DNA from: Synechococcus sp. 8F6
GTDB taxonomy: Bacteria; Cyanobacteriota; Cyanobacteriia; PCC-6307; Cyanobiaceae
Assembly: GCF_002252665.1 (NCBI RefSeq)
Contig: NZ_NQKZ01000006.1
Span: forward strand, 1 to 64,000
Reading direction: 5' to 3'
Length of the DNA: 64,000 nucleotides
Shown here: piece by piece, positions 3,689-14,253 of the stretch
Numbering within the stretch: position 1 is the stretch's first letter
How the letters are laid out: each line of letters opens with the position of its first letter
Notes under the pieces: generated by a model
The model's database searches: none
Told to the model about the DNA's origin: nothing
Seen by the model: only the letters and a program-made list of their open reading frames with translations
Program-made: the position numbers and the translations under genes

Positions 3689-4573
3689 ATGCCGTTTGGT
3701 CCAGCCTCGATCCTGGGTGTGGAGAGCTTCTCCCAAGAGTGCGAAGCACCACGTGAGCTAGTGCCAAGAGACGACGACCAAGCGAAGGAGTCAGTAATCC
3801 GGGCTGTCTACAGACAGGTTCTTGGAAATGCCTACGTGATGGAGAGCGAACGACAAATTGTTGCAGAATCGCAGTTCAAGCTAGGGGAAATCAGCGTTAG
3901 AGAACTGGTAAGACGTATCGCAAAAAGCGATCTTTATAGCACGCGCTTTTTTGACTCATGCGCGCGCTACCGCTATATCGAACTAGCTTTTCGCCACCTA
4001 CTCGGACGTGCTCCAGCAGATTTTGAAGAAATGCGGGGGCATGCCGAAAGACTAGATACAAGTGGTTACGAAGCAGACATCGACAGCTTCTTAGATTCTG
4101 ACGAATATCAGAACAACTTTGGTGAGTGGACAGTGCCATATCAACGTGGGTGGAAAACAGAATCCTGTGCAACGCTTCAAGAGTTCACCTGGTCATTCCA
4201 GTTGCTACGTGGCAACAGCAGCAGCAGCCTAAAAGGCAACTTGGCTGGAATCAGGAGCCGTCTTGGCGGTGCTGCCTATCAGAACCGCCCCCTTCCTGTG
4301 GTGGCTCCCTCATCACAAGATACCCAAGGCTGGAGCTACCGCCCAGCTGCCAACCTGACAGATCCCGTTACACGGATTGGTGTACTCGCAGGCGAAACAG
4401 GCAAAGTCTATCGGGTAGAAGTCACCGGCTATCGGGCCAATAACGTGCGACCCACATCACGCTATAGGAAAGCAAACAGGGTATTCTTCGTTCCCTTCAA
4501 TAAGCTTTCAGAGCAATATCAACTTATCCACCGCGAGGGGGGCAAGATCGCAAGCATCACACCATTAGACTGA
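3689..4573 (+). CDS. cpeC: Phycoerythrin-associated rod linker CpeC
   Basis: This 294-residue rod linker stacks PE hexamers in the rod. The N-terminus MPFGPASILGV is the hallmark start of CpeC linkers. A phycobilisome linker domain covers about residues 32-150 (VIRAVYRQVLGNAYVMESER, FRHLLGRAP, EADIDSFLDSDEYQ, TVPYQRGW), followed by a spacer and a C-terminal CpcD-like domain at about 235-294 (YRVEVTGYRANN ... NRVFFVPFNKLSEQYQLIHR, EGGKIASIT). It opens a linker-lyase-activator series in the order of the cpeCDESTR operon known from filamentous cyanobacteria. The stop codon is followed after 4 bases by the TTG of the next linker. Confidence 0.85.
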   Translation: MPFGPASILGVESFSQECEAPRELVPRDDDQAKESVIRAVYRQVLGNAYVMESERQIVAESQFKLGEISVRELVRRIAKSDLYSTRFFDSCARYRYIELAFRHLLGRAPADFEEMRGHAERLDTSGYEADIDSFLDSDEYQNNFGEWTVPYQRGWKTESCATLQEFTWSFQLLRGNSSSSLKGNLAGIRSRLGGAAYQNRPLPVVAPSSQDTQGWSYRPAANLTDPVTRIGVLAGETGKVYRVEVTGYRANNVRPTSRYRKANRVFFVPFNKLSEQYQLIHREGGKIASITPLD

Positions 4574-4577
4574 TCCA

Positions 4578-6338
4578 TTGCTCCAACTAGCTCTGTTTGA
4601 CAATAGAGCTTCCGATTCAGCAGTCAAAATTAGTTGGATGCCGAAAGACATCCAAGCAATTATATTCCAAAAAGCAAAGCAAGTCTTTTACCTGCCACCC
4701 CCACTTCTCCCCCACCCGCCCGTGACAGCAAATCAAAGCAATTCACTTGATTTCGGAGCCACTCAGCTACTTGAGGCACCAGCAAGGTTTTCTCGACAAA
4801 GGACTGATGCCGTAGAAACTGCCACAAGCGATGATCAATTTCGCAACCAGCAGCTACTAAATACACCATCAGCATTCACCGCAAACGACAATGCTGCTTT
4901 TCACAACGCAGTAAGAGCTGCATACCGGCAGGTATTCGGCAATGTTCAGCCGATGGAAAGCGAGCGCCTGCTGAGCGCCGAATCAAAATTACGCAATGGG
5001 GACATAAACGTACGCGAGTTCGTACGCAGATTGGCCCAATCCGATTTTTATCGCTCGCGCTTCTTTGATGCTGTGTCTCCGCATCGAGCAGTTGAGCTTA
5101 ATTTCAAGCATCTGCTGGGCCGCCCCCCCCAGAATCAAACAGAGGTGGCTAGCCATGTGGCATTAATCGCCACAAGTGGCTTCACAGAAGAAATCAATAG
5201 CTATCTTGATTCCGATGAGTATCTAAAGTCCTTTGGCGAGGAAACAGTTCCATACCAAACAAGTTGGAACTCACCAGTAGGCCAGCCTCAAGCAGCGTTC
5301 AACAGGATCGCAGCACTTGAGCAGAATTTCGCTGGCAGCGACACAGCCGTAGGAACCAAAAGTCAACTGCTAGGCAATCTAGTTAGCGGCTACAGGCTCT
5401 CAATAAGAGTGCCTGCACAGGTTTACCGATCTGCTTCCCTTAGTCAAACGGGAGGAACAGCGGCTGGTTCGGGCGGTATGTTAGTGCCTGTCAAGCGGAA
5501 CAGTGCCGATGGAGGCGACTCGACACCTATGCGTGGTGATCTATACGTTGGCTTTGGGCTTGGCCAGCGCCAGCAGGAAGTATTCGAGCGCTGCAACGGT
5601 GATTCAGCAGATCAGATTACTGCGCTGATCCGCTCGGTATACCGCCAAGTGCTGGGCAATCCCCATGTAATGGACAGCGAACGCAACTTAACAGCAGAAA
5701 GCCAGTTTGCTGAGGGAAGGCTCAGCACTCGCGAATTCATAAGAGCTATTGGACTTTCTTCAGACTATCGCCGGCGCTTCTTCGAAACAAATGCTCCCTA
5801 CCGTTTTGTTGAGCTGAATTTCAAACATATTTTGGGGCGTGCACCCGCATCTCAGGCCGAGATGAGTGAGCATCTACAAAGGCTAGCCATTCACGGCTAT
5901 GAAGCAGAAATCAACAGCTACGTTGATAGCGAAGAGTATCAGAACACCTTCGGCGAAAATACTGTTCCATATCTGCGTGTAGCCACGGAAAACGGTCGCG
6001 AACAGGTTTCCTTTAATCGGCACATAGCCCTAGTGCAAGGCTATGCAGCCAGTGACACCATTCAATGTGCCTCAAGCCTGCAGAATTCAGTAGCAACAAG
6101 ATCTACCCCTACAAACTGGACAAATACAACCGTACGGATTAACAGGCTTGGTGCAGCCTCTGGATCAGCTGATCCCACATCCAAGCGCTTCCGTATTGTC
6201 GTCAATGCCCAGCCAGCAGGCGGCCGCCAACGCAACCCGAACGCCAGTTACGTAGTAAGCGGCAATGACATTACCAGCCAACTAGGCTACATCCATAGAC
6301 GCGGTGGTCGGATCATTTCTGTGACCGAAATCACCTAG
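4578..6338 (+). CDS. Two-domain phycobilisome rod linker (CpeD-like duplication)
   Basis: At 586 residues this is about twice a normal rod linker. It carries two phycobilisome linker domains, at about 108-228 (FHNAVRAAYRQVFGN, VELNFKHLLGRPP) and 345-468 (ITALIRSVYRQVLGNPHVMD, VELNFKHILGRAP), each ending in a TVPY motif. A spacer of about 115 residues joins them and a CpcD-like domain at about 520-586 ends the protein. It should bridge three stacked PE hexamers rather than two (inference). The second domain resembles CpeD. The start is uncertain: TTG at 4578 lies 4 bases after the cpeC stop, ATG at 4638 would drop 20 residues, and the first 100 residues match nothing I know. Confidence 0.8.
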   Translation: MLQLALFDNRASDSAVKISWMPKDIQAIIFQKAKQVFYLPPPLLPHPPVTANQSNSLDFGATQLLEAPARFSRQRTDAVETATSDDQFRNQQLLNTPSAFTANDNAAFHNAVRAAYRQVFGNVQPMESERLLSAESKLRNGDINVREFVRRLAQSDFYRSRFFDAVSPHRAVELNFKHLLGRPPQNQTEVASHVALIATSGFTEEINSYLDSDEYLKSFGEETVPYQTSWNSPVGQPQAAFNRIAALEQNFAGSDTAVGTKSQLLGNLVSGYRLSIRVPAQVYRSASLSQTGGTAAGSGGMLVPVKRNSADGGDSTPMRGDLYVGFGLGQRQQEVFERCNGDSADQITALIRSVYRQVLGNPHVMDSERNLTAESQFAEGRLSTREFIRAIGLSSDYRRRFFETNAPYRFVELNFKHILGRAPASQAEMSEHLQRLAIHGYEAEINSYVDSEEYQNTFGENTVPYLRVATENGREQVSFNRHIALVQGYAASDTIQCASSLQNSVATRSTPTNWTNTTVRINRLGAASGSADPTSKRFRIVVNAQPAGGRQRNPNASYVVSGNDITSQLGYIHRRGGRIISVTEIT

Positions 6339-6404
6339 AAAACACTGGATCATTTATTCGGGACAACTGCTGTTTCTAAACTACCCCCTACCATCCTAAA
6401 AACC

Positions 6405-7145
6405 ATGCAAATGGAAACTCTTGACAGGCCCAATTCGGGTTTACGCCAATCAGAAGCCCAAGCCCAGCTGAAAGCCGCCTACCGCCAGGTATTTGGCAAT
6501 GCACACCTCTTTGACGAAGAGCTCTCAGTCTCTGCAGAGAGTTTGTTCATCAACGGCGACCTCACTGTGCAGGGGCTGATCAATGCTCTAGCCCTGTCCG
6601 ACAGCTATCGGCGTCTCTTTTTTGATGCAAATGGTCCCTATCGGTTTGTTGAACTCAACTTCAAGCATCTCTTAGGCCGCGCCCCACGAAATCAGGCTGA
6701 ACTGAGCAAGCATGTTCAGCTCCTGGCCGCAGAAGGCTACGAAGCAGAAATCAACAGCTATATATACGGAGCCGAGTATCTAGAGGTCTTTGGCTTTGAT
6801 ACAGTTCCTTATGACAGGGGAGTGGAAAGCCAGAAAGGTGAATCCAATCTTACGTACAACAGAACACGTGCATTAACATCGGGCTTTGCAACTTTTGACG
6901 GTGACGAACAATCACAATTATTAGTGAGCCTGGCGACCACTTCGCCCCCCGGAGGCAGTCAAAAAACACCCGGGCCAGGTGGTCGCAACAACCAGCGCTA
7001 CGCTATTCGCTGGACAAGTGCTAATCCTGTTGGCCTAAATCGAAGCGTAACGCAAACGACAACAGTTCCCTTCAGCTCGCTATCATCAGCGATCCAATCA
7101 ATTCATCGACGTAGGGGTCGTATCGTGTCAGTACGAGAGTCCTAA
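6405..7145 (+). CDS. Phycoerythrin-type rod linker (CpeE-like)
   Basis: This 246-residue linker has one phycobilisome linker domain at about residues 18-140 (AQLKAAYRQVFGNAHLFDEE, VELNFKHLLGRAP, YEAEINSYIYGAEY, DTVPYDRG) and a CpcD-like C-terminal domain at about 190-246 (QRYAIRWTS ... VPFSSLSSAIQSIHRRRGRI). By position it is the third linker of the cpeCDESTR-like series, hence CpeE-like. It lacks the features of the rod-core linker CpcG. A short gene-free stretch of 114 bases follows. The exact linker name in marine Synechococcus nomenclature cannot be fixed without comparison, so the symbol is left empty. Confidence 0.8.
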   Translation: MQMETLDRPNSGLRQSEAQAQLKAAYRQVFGNAHLFDEELSVSAESLFINGDLTVQGLINALALSDSYRRLFFDANGPYRFVELNFKHLLGRAPRNQAELSKHVQLLAAEGYEAEINSYIYGAEYLEVFGFDTVPYDRGVESQKGESNLTYNRTRALTSGFATFDGDEQSQLLVSLATTSPPGGSQKTPGPGGRNNQRYAIRWTSANPVGLNRSVTQTTTVPFSSLSSAIQSIHRRRGRIVSVRES

Positions 7146-8606: not shown

Positions 8607-8939
8607 TTGGATAAAACTGAAACACTGCAAACTGACGGAGAAGCTATCCGCCAATTCCGTAGCTGGATTCGCTCGCAGCACCTGGTTTGCCAAGGCCAAG
8701 ACTTTATTTTTGAAACAATCGATCATAGTCAGCTTGAGCGTTTTGAAGCCTGCCTAAATATGATTGGTGGGCAAGTGCGGTCTGTAAGAGCAATTGGAAA
8801 CTGGCCCATGGGGCCCCGTCGAACATTCAAGATCCTGAGAGCTGACGCAGCTGTGCCGAGGCCCAAAGGCCTGGAAATCCAACGCTACTGGGCTGAGCGT
8901 GGCTCCTTTCAGACCCGGTTTTCTGAAATAAGCAGTTGA
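8607..8939 (+). CDS. cpeR: CpeR, activator of phycoerythrin genes
   Basis: This 110-residue protein matches my memory of CpeR, the small activator needed for cpeBA expression in chromatically adapting cyanobacteria. Diagnostic stretches are RSWIRSQHLVCQGQDFIFET near residues 18-37, QLERFEACLNMIGGQV and GNWPMGPRRTFKILRA. The start is TTG at 8607, one base after the cpeT stop, so translation is probably coupled to cpeT. The last 31 bases overlap the end of cpeY on the other strand. CpeR closes the operon, consistent with its place in cpeCDESTR. Confidence 0.8.
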   Translation: MDKTETLQTDGEAIRQFRSWIRSQHLVCQGQDFIFETIDHSQLERFEACLNMIGGQVRSVRAIGNWPMGPRRTFKILRADAAVPRPKGLEIQRYWAERGSFQTRFSEISS

Positions 8940-10297
8940 CGCCTACGATCTACTAAAACATCAGGATCCTGCACGGCAAAAGCATTCTGTAAAAGCTGAA
9001 TTATTTCATGGTTATTCCCAACATCAATTGAATCAAGACCTATCAATGCCGCATAACGTAGCTCCCAGCTTGGCGTGAAATCGGAGGACAAGAGCTGCCG
9101 CACACTTTTGCACCATATATCAGGGAAATGCTTATTCAAAGCCAAGCAAGCAGCCGGTCTTGATTTGCCGAATTGTGGGCGCTTGCTATTCATAGCTTCC
9201 AGCAGCAATGCCTCAATCTCAGAAGTAGCAGCGCAAGGCCAGATTTCCACACTACCAAGAAGCTGAATGAAGAAGTAATGAGCGCCGTAGTCATTAAAAG
9301 CATCCTCCTGCCATCGCTTCCAGAAAACAGGCCAGAGCTCCTCTGCTGGCCTATGCTTCAATGTGGACAATGCTAGGTAGCAACGGCTAAAGTCAGTACC
9401 AAAAAACTCATCAAATAAAAATAATATGGTGGGTTCAGCGTCGTAGCAGTGCGCCAAGACCAAATCCTCTGGCTGATCCAACATCAGCGAATCTAAACAA
9501 GTAAGCAGGTCAAGGCCTGCATATGCTTTTTCTTGGCCCGGCCAGAGTGTCCGCAGAGCGCGCAACCTGAACACAGGGGACACGGGCGCCTTGAGGATCG
9601 AAGGCAGTAGATATGTAGCTCGACAGTCAATTAAATCCTGAATCGCCGACTGCCGGTCCATTTGATTAGGCAGGGTCAGGTGGTCTTCCAACTCTTGAAG
9701 GCGACCGCTATCACCACTGAGCTGTGCAACCCCGGACAAAGCAGCGCCGCGAACCCCTGGATTCGCATCATCTTGCAGCGATTGAAGTACGGGCAAGGCC
9801 CCATGCACTTCTAACCCAACAAGAGCCTGGATAAGAACCCTGCGGCTCTGGCCTGGATCATTAAGTAACAGCAGCATCGCCTGATGGAGTTCAACATCCT
9901 GGCAATTGAGCTGAAGAAGGGCCCAGGCGGCATTTTCAATGAGATAGTGATCGTTACTCCTTAGGCAACGCCCAATACTGGGTATGGCCCGTTGAACCCC
10001 AAGCCTGCCCAAAACTTCGACCGCTTTTCGGCGCGCAAGATTAACCGCCTGTTCGCCCGAAGAATTATCAATGAGCCGCAATAATGCCTCCTCCGTTTTA
10101 TCGCCGGGGAAATTCACGAGATGGGCGGCCGCCATGTAGTAGTCGCTGGCAGAATCAAGCGAGTCAAGAGATTGTTCAAGAATCGCTAGCGCATCATGAT
10201 GGCTGAGCCCGGGATGAATATTGTCATAACTGTTGCTGGAGCTTGCCAAAATACTGTCCTCAAAAGTCAAAGGGGGCGAAGCTGTGTAGCTCAACAT
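8909..10297 (-). CDS. cpeY: E/F-type phycoerythrobilin lyase CpeY
   Basis: A 462-residue protein built of HEAT-like helical repeats, as in the E/F lyase clan. CpeY, usually with CpeZ, attaches phycoerythrobilin to alpha-PE Cys82. Seen here: a helical repeat region from about residue 30 to 240 (AVEVLGRLGVQRAIPSIGRC, ENAAWALLQLN, VRGAALSGVAQL) followed by a less repetitive C-terminal half (DEFFGTDFSRCYLALSTLKHR, FNDYGAHYFFIQLLGSVEIW) characteristic of CpeY/MpeY rather than CpcE. Without PE-II genes in the window CpeY is more likely than MpeY. It converges on cpeR with a 31-base 3' overlap. The CpeZ candidate is at 12096-12740. Confidence 0.85.
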   Translation of the reverse strand: MLSYTASPPLTFEDSILASSSNSYDNIHPGLSHHDALAILEQSLDSLDSASDYYMAAAHLVNFPGDKTEEALLRLIDNSSGEQAVNLARRKAVEVLGRLGVQRAIPSIGRCLRSNDHYLIENAAWALLQLNCQDVELHQAMLLLLNDPGQSRRVLIQALVGLEVHGALPVLQSLQDDANPGVRGAALSGVAQLSGDSGRLQELEDHLTLPNQMDRQSAIQDLIDCRATYLLPSILKAPVSPVFRLRALRTLWPGQEKAYAGLDLLTCLDSLMLDQPEDLVLAHCYDAEPTILFLFDEFFGTDFSRCYLALSTLKHRPAEELWPVFWKRWQEDAFNDYGAHYFFIQLLGSVEIWPCAATSEIEALLLEAMNSKRPQFGKSRPAACLALNKHFPDIWCKSVRQLLSSDFTPSWELRYAALIGLDSIDVGNNHEIIQLLQNAFAVQDPDVLVDRRRQLLISENRV

Positions 10298-10417
10298 TGG
10301 CCTGATCCCAACTCTGATGGCCGGCAGGGCAAGCGCGCTGAAAGTTTAAGAATTATGTGTCTTGACGCAACCCGGCCCGGTCACGTTCAATATGAAACCA
10401 TCTAAAATAGACGCTCG

Positions 10418-10678
10418 ATGGGACCCCATCAATGTGGTGCACTTCTGGTTGTTACAAGCATCAATTCTGAAACTCCCCAGAGAGTTGCTCAGAAGCTGCT
10501 AGTTCCGCGCCATATGCTGAGCCATGCCATGCAGCAACTACACCAGAACGGAATCCCTGTTACGAAGGTGGAACCGCTTGAGGCTTCCAACTCGGCTTCC
10601 GCAGTGGTGACCAAATTGGCTGCCGACCCAGGCGAATCACCCAAAGCTGGACGGCAATCCCCTCGCCGCCGCAAATAG
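10418..10678 (+). CDS. Small protein with a CpcD-like linker motif
   Basis: An 86-residue basic protein. Residues about 8-55 can be laid over the CpcD/rod-capping linker fold: a first strand (GALLVVTSIN), then KLLVPRHMLSHAMQQLHQNG followed by IPVTKVEPL, matching the pattern 'VPxxxLxxxxQxLHRxGxxIxSI'. The C-terminal 30 residues are low-complexity and end in SPRRRK. It stands alone between divergent cpeY and the convergent gene at 10685. If real it may cap or join rods (inference). No strong ribosome-binding site is visible and the start codon is uncertain. Confidence 0.5.
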   Translation: MGPHQCGALLVVTSINSETPQRVAQKLLVPRHMLSHAMQQLHQNGIPVTKVEPLEASNSASAVVTKLAADPGESPKAGRQSPRRRK

Positions 10679-10684
10679 CCCAGC

Positions 10685-11113
10685 TCAGCCCTGAAGCTCG
10701 AACACGCCATCAGGAGCACGCCCCTGTTTGAGCAATTCCCAGTTAATCGACTGAAGAAAAGCGGCGGTGTTCAGAGTCTCCACCACATCGACCCCCCAGT
10801 CGCCCCTCTGCAGCAACGCTCCAGAGGCTCCTTGATCGTCCTTACGACCACCCAAGGCCAAAAGCTGGCACGCATCATCTGTAGCGCCTGTAGAGCAGCG
10901 CAGCTGACGCCAGGCTTGGAGCATGGCCTTGGCCAGATCAATGGGCAGCAGATCCGCTTCCACCTGAACCAACCAGTGGGGGTGGCTCAGTGCCTGAACA
11001 TGGAAATCGGTGGATAGGTGCGCGACAAGCCCCGCCGCCAGATCGGCGGAATTGAGGGCTTTCAGGCTTTCGGAAGCCACCTGAAGGTTGTGGGAGAGCA
11101 AAAAGCGTGTCAT
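10685..11113 (-). CDS. Unknown protein in the phycoerythrin cluster
   Basis: A 142-residue soluble protein of unknown function, starting MTRFLLSHNLQVASESLK. It contains ALSHPHWLVQVEADLLPIDL in the middle and a C-terminal segment GDWGVDVVETLNTAAFLQSI. It has no signal peptide, membrane segment or recognised motif. It is divergently oriented from cpeF with 72 bases between the starts, and it converges on the small CpcD-like gene with a gap of 6 bases. The position suggests a phycobilisome-related job, but nothing in the sequence proves it. Confidence 0.6.
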   Translation of the reverse strand: MTRFLLSHNLQVASESLKALNSADLAAGLVAHLSTDFHVQALSHPHWLVQVEADLLPIDLAKAMLQAWRQLRCSTGATDDACQLLALGGRKDDQGASGALLQRGDWGVDVVETLNTAAFLQSINWELLKQGRAPDGVFELQG

Positions 11114-11174: not shown

Positions 11175-11188
11175 AGGAGGGAACCTTG
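11175..11188 (+). promoter_or_regulatory. Strong Shine-Dalgarno fixing a TTG start for cpeF
   Basis: AGGAGG at 11175-11180 stands 5 bases before a TTG codon at 11186. No ATG or GTG in this frame offers a comparable site, so TTG is taken as the start of the 296-residue lyase. Confidence 0.75.
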
Positions 11189-12076
11189 TCTGCCGAGCTG
11201 TCCGCTACCCCCGCATCTGGGATCCAGCAACTGAGCGTCGAAGAAGCCAACATTCTGGCTACAGAGCTGCGTTCCCAACTTCGTCAGGGGTTAGTTCCTT
11301 CATCCGACACCCCAGCAATTGAGCGCATGGTGGCTGGTCTCGGCGATACCAGGGGCTTGATGCGGCTCACCTTTGCCGAAAGCCTTGGAGCAGTGGGTGC
11401 TGCAGCGGTGCCAACACTCTGCAGTGCATTGCAGTCTCACGACAACGTCACCGTTCGACGTGCTGCAGCTAAGACTCTGACCCTGATTGCAGATCCAGCT
11501 GCCTTGCCCGTCTTACTCGAAACTCTGCTCTCAGATTCGGATCCCGTTGTGCAGGGATCAGCGGTCGGAGCGATGGCTGCAGTCGGCGAGCAGGCTCTCG
11601 ATCCACTCCTCTCAGTGCTGGTTCATCCAAAAGCTTCGGCCATGCAGCAGGGGCTGGCCAGCTGGGGGATTGCTTTTATCGGCGCCAAGGCGCCCGAAGC
11701 GCTTCGCCAAGCAGCCAGCTCTCCTGATGCCAGGATAAGAGCGGCAGCAATAGCAGCTCTCGGCGAACAGATCCAGGCTCTGGGGGATGACGAGGCGAGG
11801 CAGCTGCTGCTAACCGCGCTGGGTGACCTGGACTCCGAAGTGCGGGCAGAAGCTGCAACGCTGATGGGGAAGTTGCAGGAGCCAGAATGGGCCTGTCCGC
11901 GCCTGCTCCCCCTGCTCACCGACTCGGAAGAACAGGTTCGCAAAAACGCTGCTCTATCGCTGATGAAGCTAGGAGCCAGGGATGCATTACCTACATTACA
12001 AGCAAGTGTGGAACAGGAAGTACAACCTGGAGTCAGATTAGTGCTCGAACTAGCAATCAGTCAGCTGAGCAAGTGA
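11186..12076 (+). CDS. cpeF: E/F-type bilin lyase CpeF (MpeU/MpeV-like)
   Basis: A 296-residue protein made almost wholly of HEAT/PBS-lyase repeats (RLTFAESLGAVGAAAVPTLC, VRRAAAKTLTLIADPAALPV, VQGSAVGAMAAVGEQ, IRAAAIAALGE, VRAEAATLMGKL, VRKNAALSLMKLG). Length and repeat order fit CpeF/MpeU-type lyases, which attach a bilin to the doubly linked Cys50/Cys61 site of beta-PE. The matching substrate CpeB, with both cysteines, is encoded nearby at 13369-13929. The TTG start is supported by AGGAGG 5 bases upstream. It is convergent with cpeZ, 19 bases away. A different E/F-clan role cannot be excluded. Confidence 0.72.
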   Translation: MSAELSATPASGIQQLSVEEANILATELRSQLRQGLVPSSDTPAIERMVAGLGDTRGLMRLTFAESLGAVGAAAVPTLCSALQSHDNVTVRRAAAKTLTLIADPAALPVLLETLLSDSDPVVQGSAVGAMAAVGEQALDPLLSVLVHPKASAMQQGLASWGIAFIGAKAPEALRQAASSPDARIRAAAIAALGEQIQALGDDEARQLLLTALGDLDSEVRAEAATLMGKLQEPEWACPRLLPLLTDSEEQVRKNAALSLMKLGARDALPTLQASVEQEVQPGVRLVLELAISQLSK

Positions 12077-12813: not shown

Positions 12814-13323
<510 letters not shown>

Positions 13324-13368
13324 TTAATTGAGTTGTAGTGGTTTAAAAAAGCAATCTCTTCGGATGAA

Positions 13369-14253
<885 letters not shown>

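What the first reader, a model, noticed from the sequence alone, without database searches (positions are those of the whole stretch)
10418..10678. Possible new small CpcD-like linker inside the phycoerythrin cluster
An 86-residue frame keeps the strand and 'VPxxxLxxxxQxLHxxGxxI' pattern of the CpcD fold, then ends in a basic tail. It has no partner domain. It could cap PE rods as CpcD caps PC rods.
Basis: inference. Interest (0 to 1): 0.55.

Follow-up and report, generated by a model that had tools for sequence, protein, structure and literature searches.

The report
Unk11: divergent CpcD-like phycoerythrin linker
A small gene in the red light-antenna cluster of ocean and lake picocyanobacteria, listed since 2007 only as 'unknown 11', appears to encode a divergent version of the plug-like linker domain found in these antennae, with a positively charged tail, and may cap the antenna rods.

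Summary
The 86-codon frame at 10418-10678 (+) is a real, conserved gene. Its own Pfam CpcD hit is below threshold (16.5 bits, cut-off 27), but family-level evidence agrees on a CpcD-type fold. A profile of 30 relatives picks CpcD domains of phycobilisome proteins as next-best hits in the own genome and first hits in the PDB. Profile-profile alignment to CpcD domains gives 94.8% (20 column shuffles: at most 0.46%). The AlphaFold model is beta-beta-alpha-beta, and Foldseek's first 21 PDB matches are phycobilisome entries, none below E 0.001. The gene lies between cpeY and a DUF2656 gene. It is very probably unk11 of Six et al. 2007, left there as unknown. It was found in 31 of 43 phycoerythrin-plus-phycobilisome Cyanobiaceae genomes and 0 of 108 others, 55 of which keep phycoerythrin alpha with few phycobiliprotein genes. 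All 55 distinct homologues collected end basic. Published environmental RNA data rank its promoter among the cluster's strongest. Best reading: a phycoerythrin-rod linker that plugs the distal hexamer, as CpcD does on phycocyanin rods. The fold is supported; capping and the tail's role are inferred. Gene known; I saw no printed fold assignment.

The parts
10418..10678 (+). Unk11 gene, 86 aa plus stop
   Evidence: found in 31 of 151 Cyanobiaceae genomes sampled
10418..10579 (+). CpcD-like domain, residues 1-54 (strand 8-14, strand 24-30, helix 31-44, strand 48-53)
10586..10675 (+). disordered stretch and basic C-terminal tail, residues 57-86; net charge of the last 15 residues is +3 to +9 in 55 of 55 distinct proteins of A1 and A3
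10298..10417 (.). 120-bp stretch between divergent cpeY and unk11, presumably holding both promoters; the consensus scan found no sigma-70-like site on the + strand
8909..10297 (-). CpeY-like bilin lyase (context)
   Evidence: NF058505 318.8 bits, below its cut-off of 600
10685..11113 (-). DUF2656 protein, PF10847 (Unk12 by position), tail-to-tail with unk11 (context)
   Evidence: 107.9 bits, cut-off 28
11186..12076 (+). HEAT-repeat, bilin-lyase-like protein (context; 'CpeZ_HEAT' in my scripts, exact identity not resolved)
   Evidence: no model over its cut-off
3689..7145 (+). three phycoerythrin rod linkers (294, 586 and 246 aa), each with PF00427 and a C-terminal CpcD match (context); the 586-aa one scores 23.1 bits for CpcD in hmmscan, below the cut-off, and 28.2 in the genome search
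12814..13929 (-). cpeA and cpeB, phycoerythrin alpha and beta (context)
   Evidence: NF058506 298.3 bits and NF058508 340.4 bits, both over cut-off

Best explanation
The gene is unk11 of the picocyanobacterial phycoerythrin region. It encodes a small stand-alone linker: residues 1-54 form a divergent CpcD-type beta-beta-alpha-beta domain, followed by a variable disordered stretch and a conserved basic end. Supported here: the gene is real, the fold is CpcD-like, and in the family sample it was found only in phycoerythrin-plus-phycobilisome genomes. Inferred: the domain plugs the central hole of the core-distal phycoerythrin hexamer and ends or stabilises the rod, as CpcD does on phycocyanin rods, while the basic tail holds it by charge to the acidic biliproteins (acidity recalled, not tested) or to a neighbouring rod.
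For: Fold: the A1 profile's first 8 of 16 PDB hits are rod linkers and ferredoxin-NADP reductase, matched at their CpcD domains. In the own genome the profile's 3 non-self hits all overlap PF01383 hits. Among 9114 frames of 88 loci (L067-L154), 44 are unk11 (E below 1e-9) and the 32 other frames listed at E up to 0.5, read by eye, all carry a CpcD-type motif. hhalign gives 94.8% against CpcD domains; 20 column shuffles 0.04-0.46%, reversed CpcD 0.09%, DUF2656 against CpcD 0.08%. Foldseek's ranks 1-21 in the PDB are all phycobilisome entries. Distribution: 31 of 43 genomes with CpeA and at least 8 phycobiliprotein matches; 0 of 55 with CpeA over cut-off but only 1-2 matches; 0 of the other 53 (grouping mine). 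Rods: PE-containing strains studied in 2007 lack cpcC and cpcD (PMC2246261); in the window's genome a PF01383 search found one other short stand-alone frame, 93 aa, which I read as ApcC. Expression: the unk11 start site in CC9605 is among the most active of the cluster, beside cpeBA, mpeBA and rpcBA (PMC5069720, passages), as expected of a structural part. Precedent: stand-alone CpcD genes lie beside rod-linker and cpeS-like genes in other cyanobacteria.
Against: Nothing I read reports the protein in a phycobilisome; the gels of PMC2246261 could not show ApcC or CpcD, so also not this size. 12 of 43 phycoerythrin-plus-phycobilisome genomes have no detected unk11. By my reading of a truncated list, four unk11 genomes (G076, G102, G140, G143) also have a short CpcD-like frame (G076's is over the Pfam cut-off), so it is not a simple stand-in for CpcD. 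Its neighbours are lyase-like genes and DUF2656, not linkers. The sequence is very variable (mean column identity 25-26%). No Foldseek match reaches E 0.001 and no VIA Z reaches 8; procarboxypeptidase prodomains score 5.6 against 6.2 for the best phycobilisome chain. 5 of 38 aligned members have aspartate, and 2 another residue, in place of the VP proline. PF01383 at E up to 10 also rings in 7 of 14 control genomes, so the single-sequence hit alone is weak.
Confidence: 0.6

Rival explanations
1. Unk11 is a rod linker, but at an internal seam (phycocyanin-phycoerythrin or PE-I/PE-II junction) or a lateral tether between rods, with the tail as the working part, and does not cap the rod.
For: The basic end is kept in 55 of 55 proteins although the stretch before it varies from 15 to 74 residues. 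Stand-alone CpcD relatives outside the family range from 69 to 532 aa, much more than a plain plug needs.
Against: Internal seams already have the C-terminal CpcD domains of the three PF00427 linkers. Unk11 occurs both with and without a second, PE-II-like alpha gene (at least 15 of 31 have one over cut-off; the window's genome shows none), so no PE-II seam is needed.
Confidence: 0.2
2. Unk11 is an assembly or maturation factor for phycoerythrin that binds the hexamer cavity transiently, working with CpeY, the HEAT-repeat lyases and DUF2656 beside which it is encoded.
For: Its neighbours are lyase-like genes and DUF2656, not linkers.
Against: Genomes that keep phycoerythrin alpha but show few phycobiliprotein genes lack it (0 of 55), so it follows rods rather than phycoerythrin itself. 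Its promoter is as active as those of antenna subunits in CC9605. DUF2656 is also in filamentous loci (L125-L154) where no unk11 frame was found within the DNA held.
Confidence: 0.15
3. The CpcD resemblance is convergent or wrong and Unk11 is an unrelated small basic protein.
For: Below the Pfam cut-off; only 14 of 30 members match PF01383 at E up to 1; middling structural Z scores.
Against: Profile, profile-profile and fold comparisons all point to the same domain in the same register, with clean controls.
Confidence: 0.05

Closest known systems
Unk11 of marine Synechococcus (Six et al. 2007)
   Same: Same place in the PE-I region, next to conserved unk12, variable in length and 3' end; homologues from WH7803 and RCC307, two strains of that paper, were recovered here (L101, L103)
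   Different: Described there only as a conserved hypothetical gene; no fold or role in the passages read
CpcD, rod-capping linker of phycocyanin rods (NF058509, PF01383)
   Same: Small, no partner domain, CpcD-type domain, encoded in the rod gene region
   Different: No match to NF058509, below the PF01383 cut-off, adds a disordered basic tail, tied to phycoerythrin rather than phycocyanin rods
ApcC core linker and the N-terminal CpcD domain of ferredoxin-NADP reductase
   Same: CpcD-type fold; frames of about 380-430 aa, which I read as the reductase, are the next-best profile hits in many genomes
   Different: ApcC caps the core (recalled); in the reductase the domain is fused to an enzyme (PMC10696076, passages)
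Stand-alone CpcD-domain genes near rod-linker and cpeS-like genes in other cyanobacteria (L166, L169, L173, L183 and others)
   Same: CpcD domain in a phycoerythrin gene cluster, often with a charged tail
   Different: The two of L166 are over the PF01383 cut-off; different position, tails up to several hundred residues, orthology to Unk11 not shown

Membership tests
PF01383 CpcD/allophycocyanin linker domain | score above Pfam gathering cut-off (27 bits) | tested here: not met
   16.5 bits, E 0.011; 14 of 30 relatives match at E up to 1, best 0.0003
PF01383 CpcD/allophycocyanin linker domain | detectable homology by family profile | tested here: met
   hhalign 94.8% with controls at most 0.46%; profile searches
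PF01383 CpcD/allophycocyanin linker domain | beta-beta-alpha-beta fold like ApcC and CpcD | tested here: met
   AlphaFold domain with block pLDDT 75-90 over residues 11-50; Foldseek ranks 1-21 all phycobilisome entries, best E 0.032; VIA Z 6.2. A predicted, not a solved, structure
CpcD rod cap (NF058509) | equivalog model match | tested here: not met
   no hit listed with max E 10, though HMMER's filters drop most weak hits
CpcD rod cap (NF058509) | located at the core-distal end of a rod | not testable with these tools
   needs structure or biochemistry
Unk11 (Six et al. 2007) | PE-I region, next to unk12, variable length and 3' end, in PE-containing strains only | tested here: met
   the paper's own sequences or locus tags were not compared letter by letter

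The most novel reading that the evidence does not exclude
Phycoerythrin rods have their own family of caps: stand-alone CpcD-type plugs with a disordered, basic-ended tail, represented by Unk11 in picocyanobacteria and by longer-tailed genes near rod-linker and cpeS-like genes in other cyanobacteria. The tail would do something no known cap does, such as tethering neighbouring rods or phycobilisomes.
Probability: 0.3. Interest if true: 0.7.

Novelty: new variant of a known kind. Interest (0 to 1): 0.5.

Why it matters
Picocyanobacteria owe their colour niches to phycoerythrin rods, and what ends those rods was not named in the passages I read: PE-containing strains were reported to lack CpcD. 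A gene of unknown function since 2007, strongly transcribed at sea, gets a testable role. It also shows that a single-sequence Pfam scan at the curated cut-off misses it, so annotation of phycoerythrin linkers is incomplete.

Tried and rejected
Single-sequence Pfam and NCBIfam scans are inconclusive on their own. I considered unk10 as a relative because of a second unk11-like copy in genome G147 (L067:8413-8733). Unk10 has a Nif11 domain (PMC3877281, passages), so it is unrelated; the copy lies beside frames that I read as ruvC and chlI, not in the rod cluster.

Strict mutual exclusion with cpcD was tested and fails: short CpcD-like frames (open frame at most 145 aa) also occur in 5 of the 43 phycoerythrin genomes (G049, G076, G102, G140, G143) by my reading of a truncated list; the G076 one was checked and is over the Pfam cut-off (L167).

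The promoter scan found nothing on the + strand. Of the 12 phycoerythrin-plus-phycobilisome genomes without detected unk11, eight were looked into and no copy was found in the stretches read: G025, G049, G083, G084, G091, G149 and G002, G128 (L054, L063). G008, G063, G114 and G133 were not opened.

Paper searches: 'unk11' with Synechococcus (2 papers, passages seen in both), phycobilisome with DUF2656 (0 papers), and searches on cpeY/cpeZ/unk8, cryo-EM of marine phycobilisomes, unk10, rod-capping with CpcD and phycoerythrin, CpcD-like, cpcD with cpeE and cpeS, and small linker/rod cap/Pfam01383/cpe operon (0 papers). No title, listed abstract start or passage that I saw says that Unk11 is CpcD-like; most of the listed papers were not opened, and the library lacks most subscription papers and preprints. 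Opened, passages only: PMC2246261 (plus its section 16 whole), PMC5069720, PMC12525769, PMC3877281, PMC10696076.

Rows dropped: from A1, one sequence with unknown residues (L058) and identical repeats; from A3, six frames (L086, L091, L108, L113, L114, L116: unknown residues or no MGP/MGI start). The small-CpcD alignment kept only 7 of 21 sequences because of my pattern. One stretch of L069 was never scanned against Pfam.

Full report
Observation. The frame at 10418-10678 (+) is present as described. An 86-aa frame is nothing special in this window (138 ORFs of at least 60 aa overlap the first 30 kb), so I tested conservation. Three of five other same-genus genomes encode it over its whole length at 69-78% identity, under moderate purifying selection (whole-gene dN/dS 0.25-0.74). 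In 17 of 30 loci brought in by it, the same small frame sits between cpeY and a DUF2656 gene, in the order cpeY(-), unk11(+), DUF2656(-), HEAT-repeat lyase-like gene(+). The scripts label the last gene CpeZ_HEAT; which E/F-type lyase it is was not resolved.

Identity. Six et al. 2007 (PMC2246261, passages) list 13 unknown genes of the rod region. Unk11 lies in the PE-I region beside the conserved unk12, is variable in length and 3' end, and occurs in the PE-containing strains. The window gene fits these points, and homologues were recovered from WH7803 and RCC307 (L101, L103), two strains in that table. I did not compare the paper's own sequences.

Fold. The window protein alone scores 16.5 bits against PF01383, cut-off 27; in alignment A1, 14 of 30 members match at E up to 1. 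As a family the signal is clear. Against the PDB the A1 profile's first 8 of 16 hits are rod linkers and ferredoxin-NADP reductase, matched at their CpcD domains (E 0.018 to 0.6). In 151 Cyanobiaceae genomes there are 32 full-length places in 31 genomes with E at most 1.7e-10; the weakest (G080) has unknown bases, and the next hit (E 8.5e-10) is in a 411-aa frame. The further hits fall mostly in frames of about 380-430 aa and 250-330 aa, which I read as the reductase and rod linkers; in the own genome all three non-self hits overlap PF01383 hits. In 9114 frames from 88 loci, 44 are unk11 and the other 32 listed all carry the CpcD motif by eye. Profile-profile alignment with CpcD domains gives 94.8% with controls at most 0.46% (E-values there are for one pair). 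The AlphaFold model has mean pLDDT 65.6 and pTM 0.45, with blocks of 75-90 over residues 11-50, pLDDT below 50 at 57-80, and a strand-strand-helix-strand order. Foldseek's first 21 PDB matches are all phycobilisome entries, though none reaches E 0.001; VIA-align Z is at most 6.2, with procarboxypeptidase prodomains close behind at 5.6.

Start and tail. In 55 distinct proteins of A1 and A3 the last 15 residues carry a net charge of +3 to +9, while the stretch before varies from 15 to 74 residues. This suggests a kept function of the end; what it binds is unknown. The shared MGP or MGI start is partly a matter of how I trimmed the rows: among the frames left out, two read VGPF where the others read MGPF and two read otherwise.

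Distribution. I grouped the 151 genomes by the CpeA search: 43 have CpeA over cut-off and at least 8 phycobiliprotein matches; 55 have it over cut-off with 1-2 matches (Prochlorococcus-like, recalled); 53 have none over cut-off. Unk11 was found in 31, 0 and 0 of these; DUF2656 in 38, 0 and 0. Some genomes are incomplete, so absences are not all firm. Unk11 thus follows phycobilisomes with phycoerythrin, not phycoerythrin alone. In a sample of 291 genomes of the class, matches from profile position 1 were seen only in the same family; the three genomes outside it with E at most 1e-6 match over part of the profile.

Expression. In Red Sea metatranscriptomes the unk11 start site of CC9605 is named with cpeBA, mpeBA and rpcBA as the most active of the cluster (PMC5069720, passages). 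That fits a structural part better than a trace enzyme.

Wider relatives. One hit outside the family led to stand-alone CpcD genes in phycoerythrin clusters of other cyanobacteria. In L166 two such genes follow three rod linkers and precede a CpeS-like gene, and both are over the PF01383 cut-off. Of the 30 best loci from a search with one of them, one (L197) is a rod linker; by my count 18 of 30 have a gene similar to a cpe gene of the window within about 1.5 kb. Several have long tails that end basic, others are short or end acidic. They are a precedent for phycoerythrin-associated caps; orthology to Unk11 is not shown (hhalign 90.0% against 7 of them, less than 94.8% against linker, reductase and ApcC domains).

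Mechanism. Shown or supported here: gene, fold, distribution, tail conservation. From passages of papers: CpcD ends phycocyanin rods and the reductase's CpcD domain binds rod ends (PMC10696076), and PE-containing strains studied in 2007 lacked cpcC and cpcD (PMC2246261). Inferred: Unk11 plugs the distal phycoerythrin hexamer, and the tail adds a charge-based hold. The main rivals are an internal or lateral linker and a transient assembly factor. I file it as a divergent CpcD-fold linker and not as CpcD, since both curated score tests were not met.

Noticed in passing
L166:3818-4728; also L169, L173, L182-L185, L187, L194: Stand-alone CpcD-domain genes beside rod-linker or cpeS-like genes in other cyanobacteria; some carry tails of several hundred residues with repeated basic 'SGFNKPKS'-type motifs.
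   Followed up: partly
window 10685-11113: DUF2656 (PF10847, Unk12 by position): found in 38 of 43 phycoerythrin-plus-phycobilisome Cyanobiaceae genomes and 0 of 108 others, and also in filamentous cyanobacteria; a search for phycobilisome with DUF2656 found no paper.
   Followed up: partly
L067:8413-8733: A second unk11-like gene (106 aa) in genome G147, outside the rod cluster, of the subgroup with 'LDTRFM' in place of the VP motif.
   Followed up: partly
L069:10035-10307: Short CpcD-type frame directly after a rod linker in what is probably Aphanocapsa feldmannii (contig length equals that of L123), a genome without detected unk11.
   Followed up: no
   Followed up: partly
window 4578-6338: Fused rod linker with two PF00427 stretches and a C-terminal CpcD match, resembling the long MpeD-like linker described for WH7805.
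   Followed up: no
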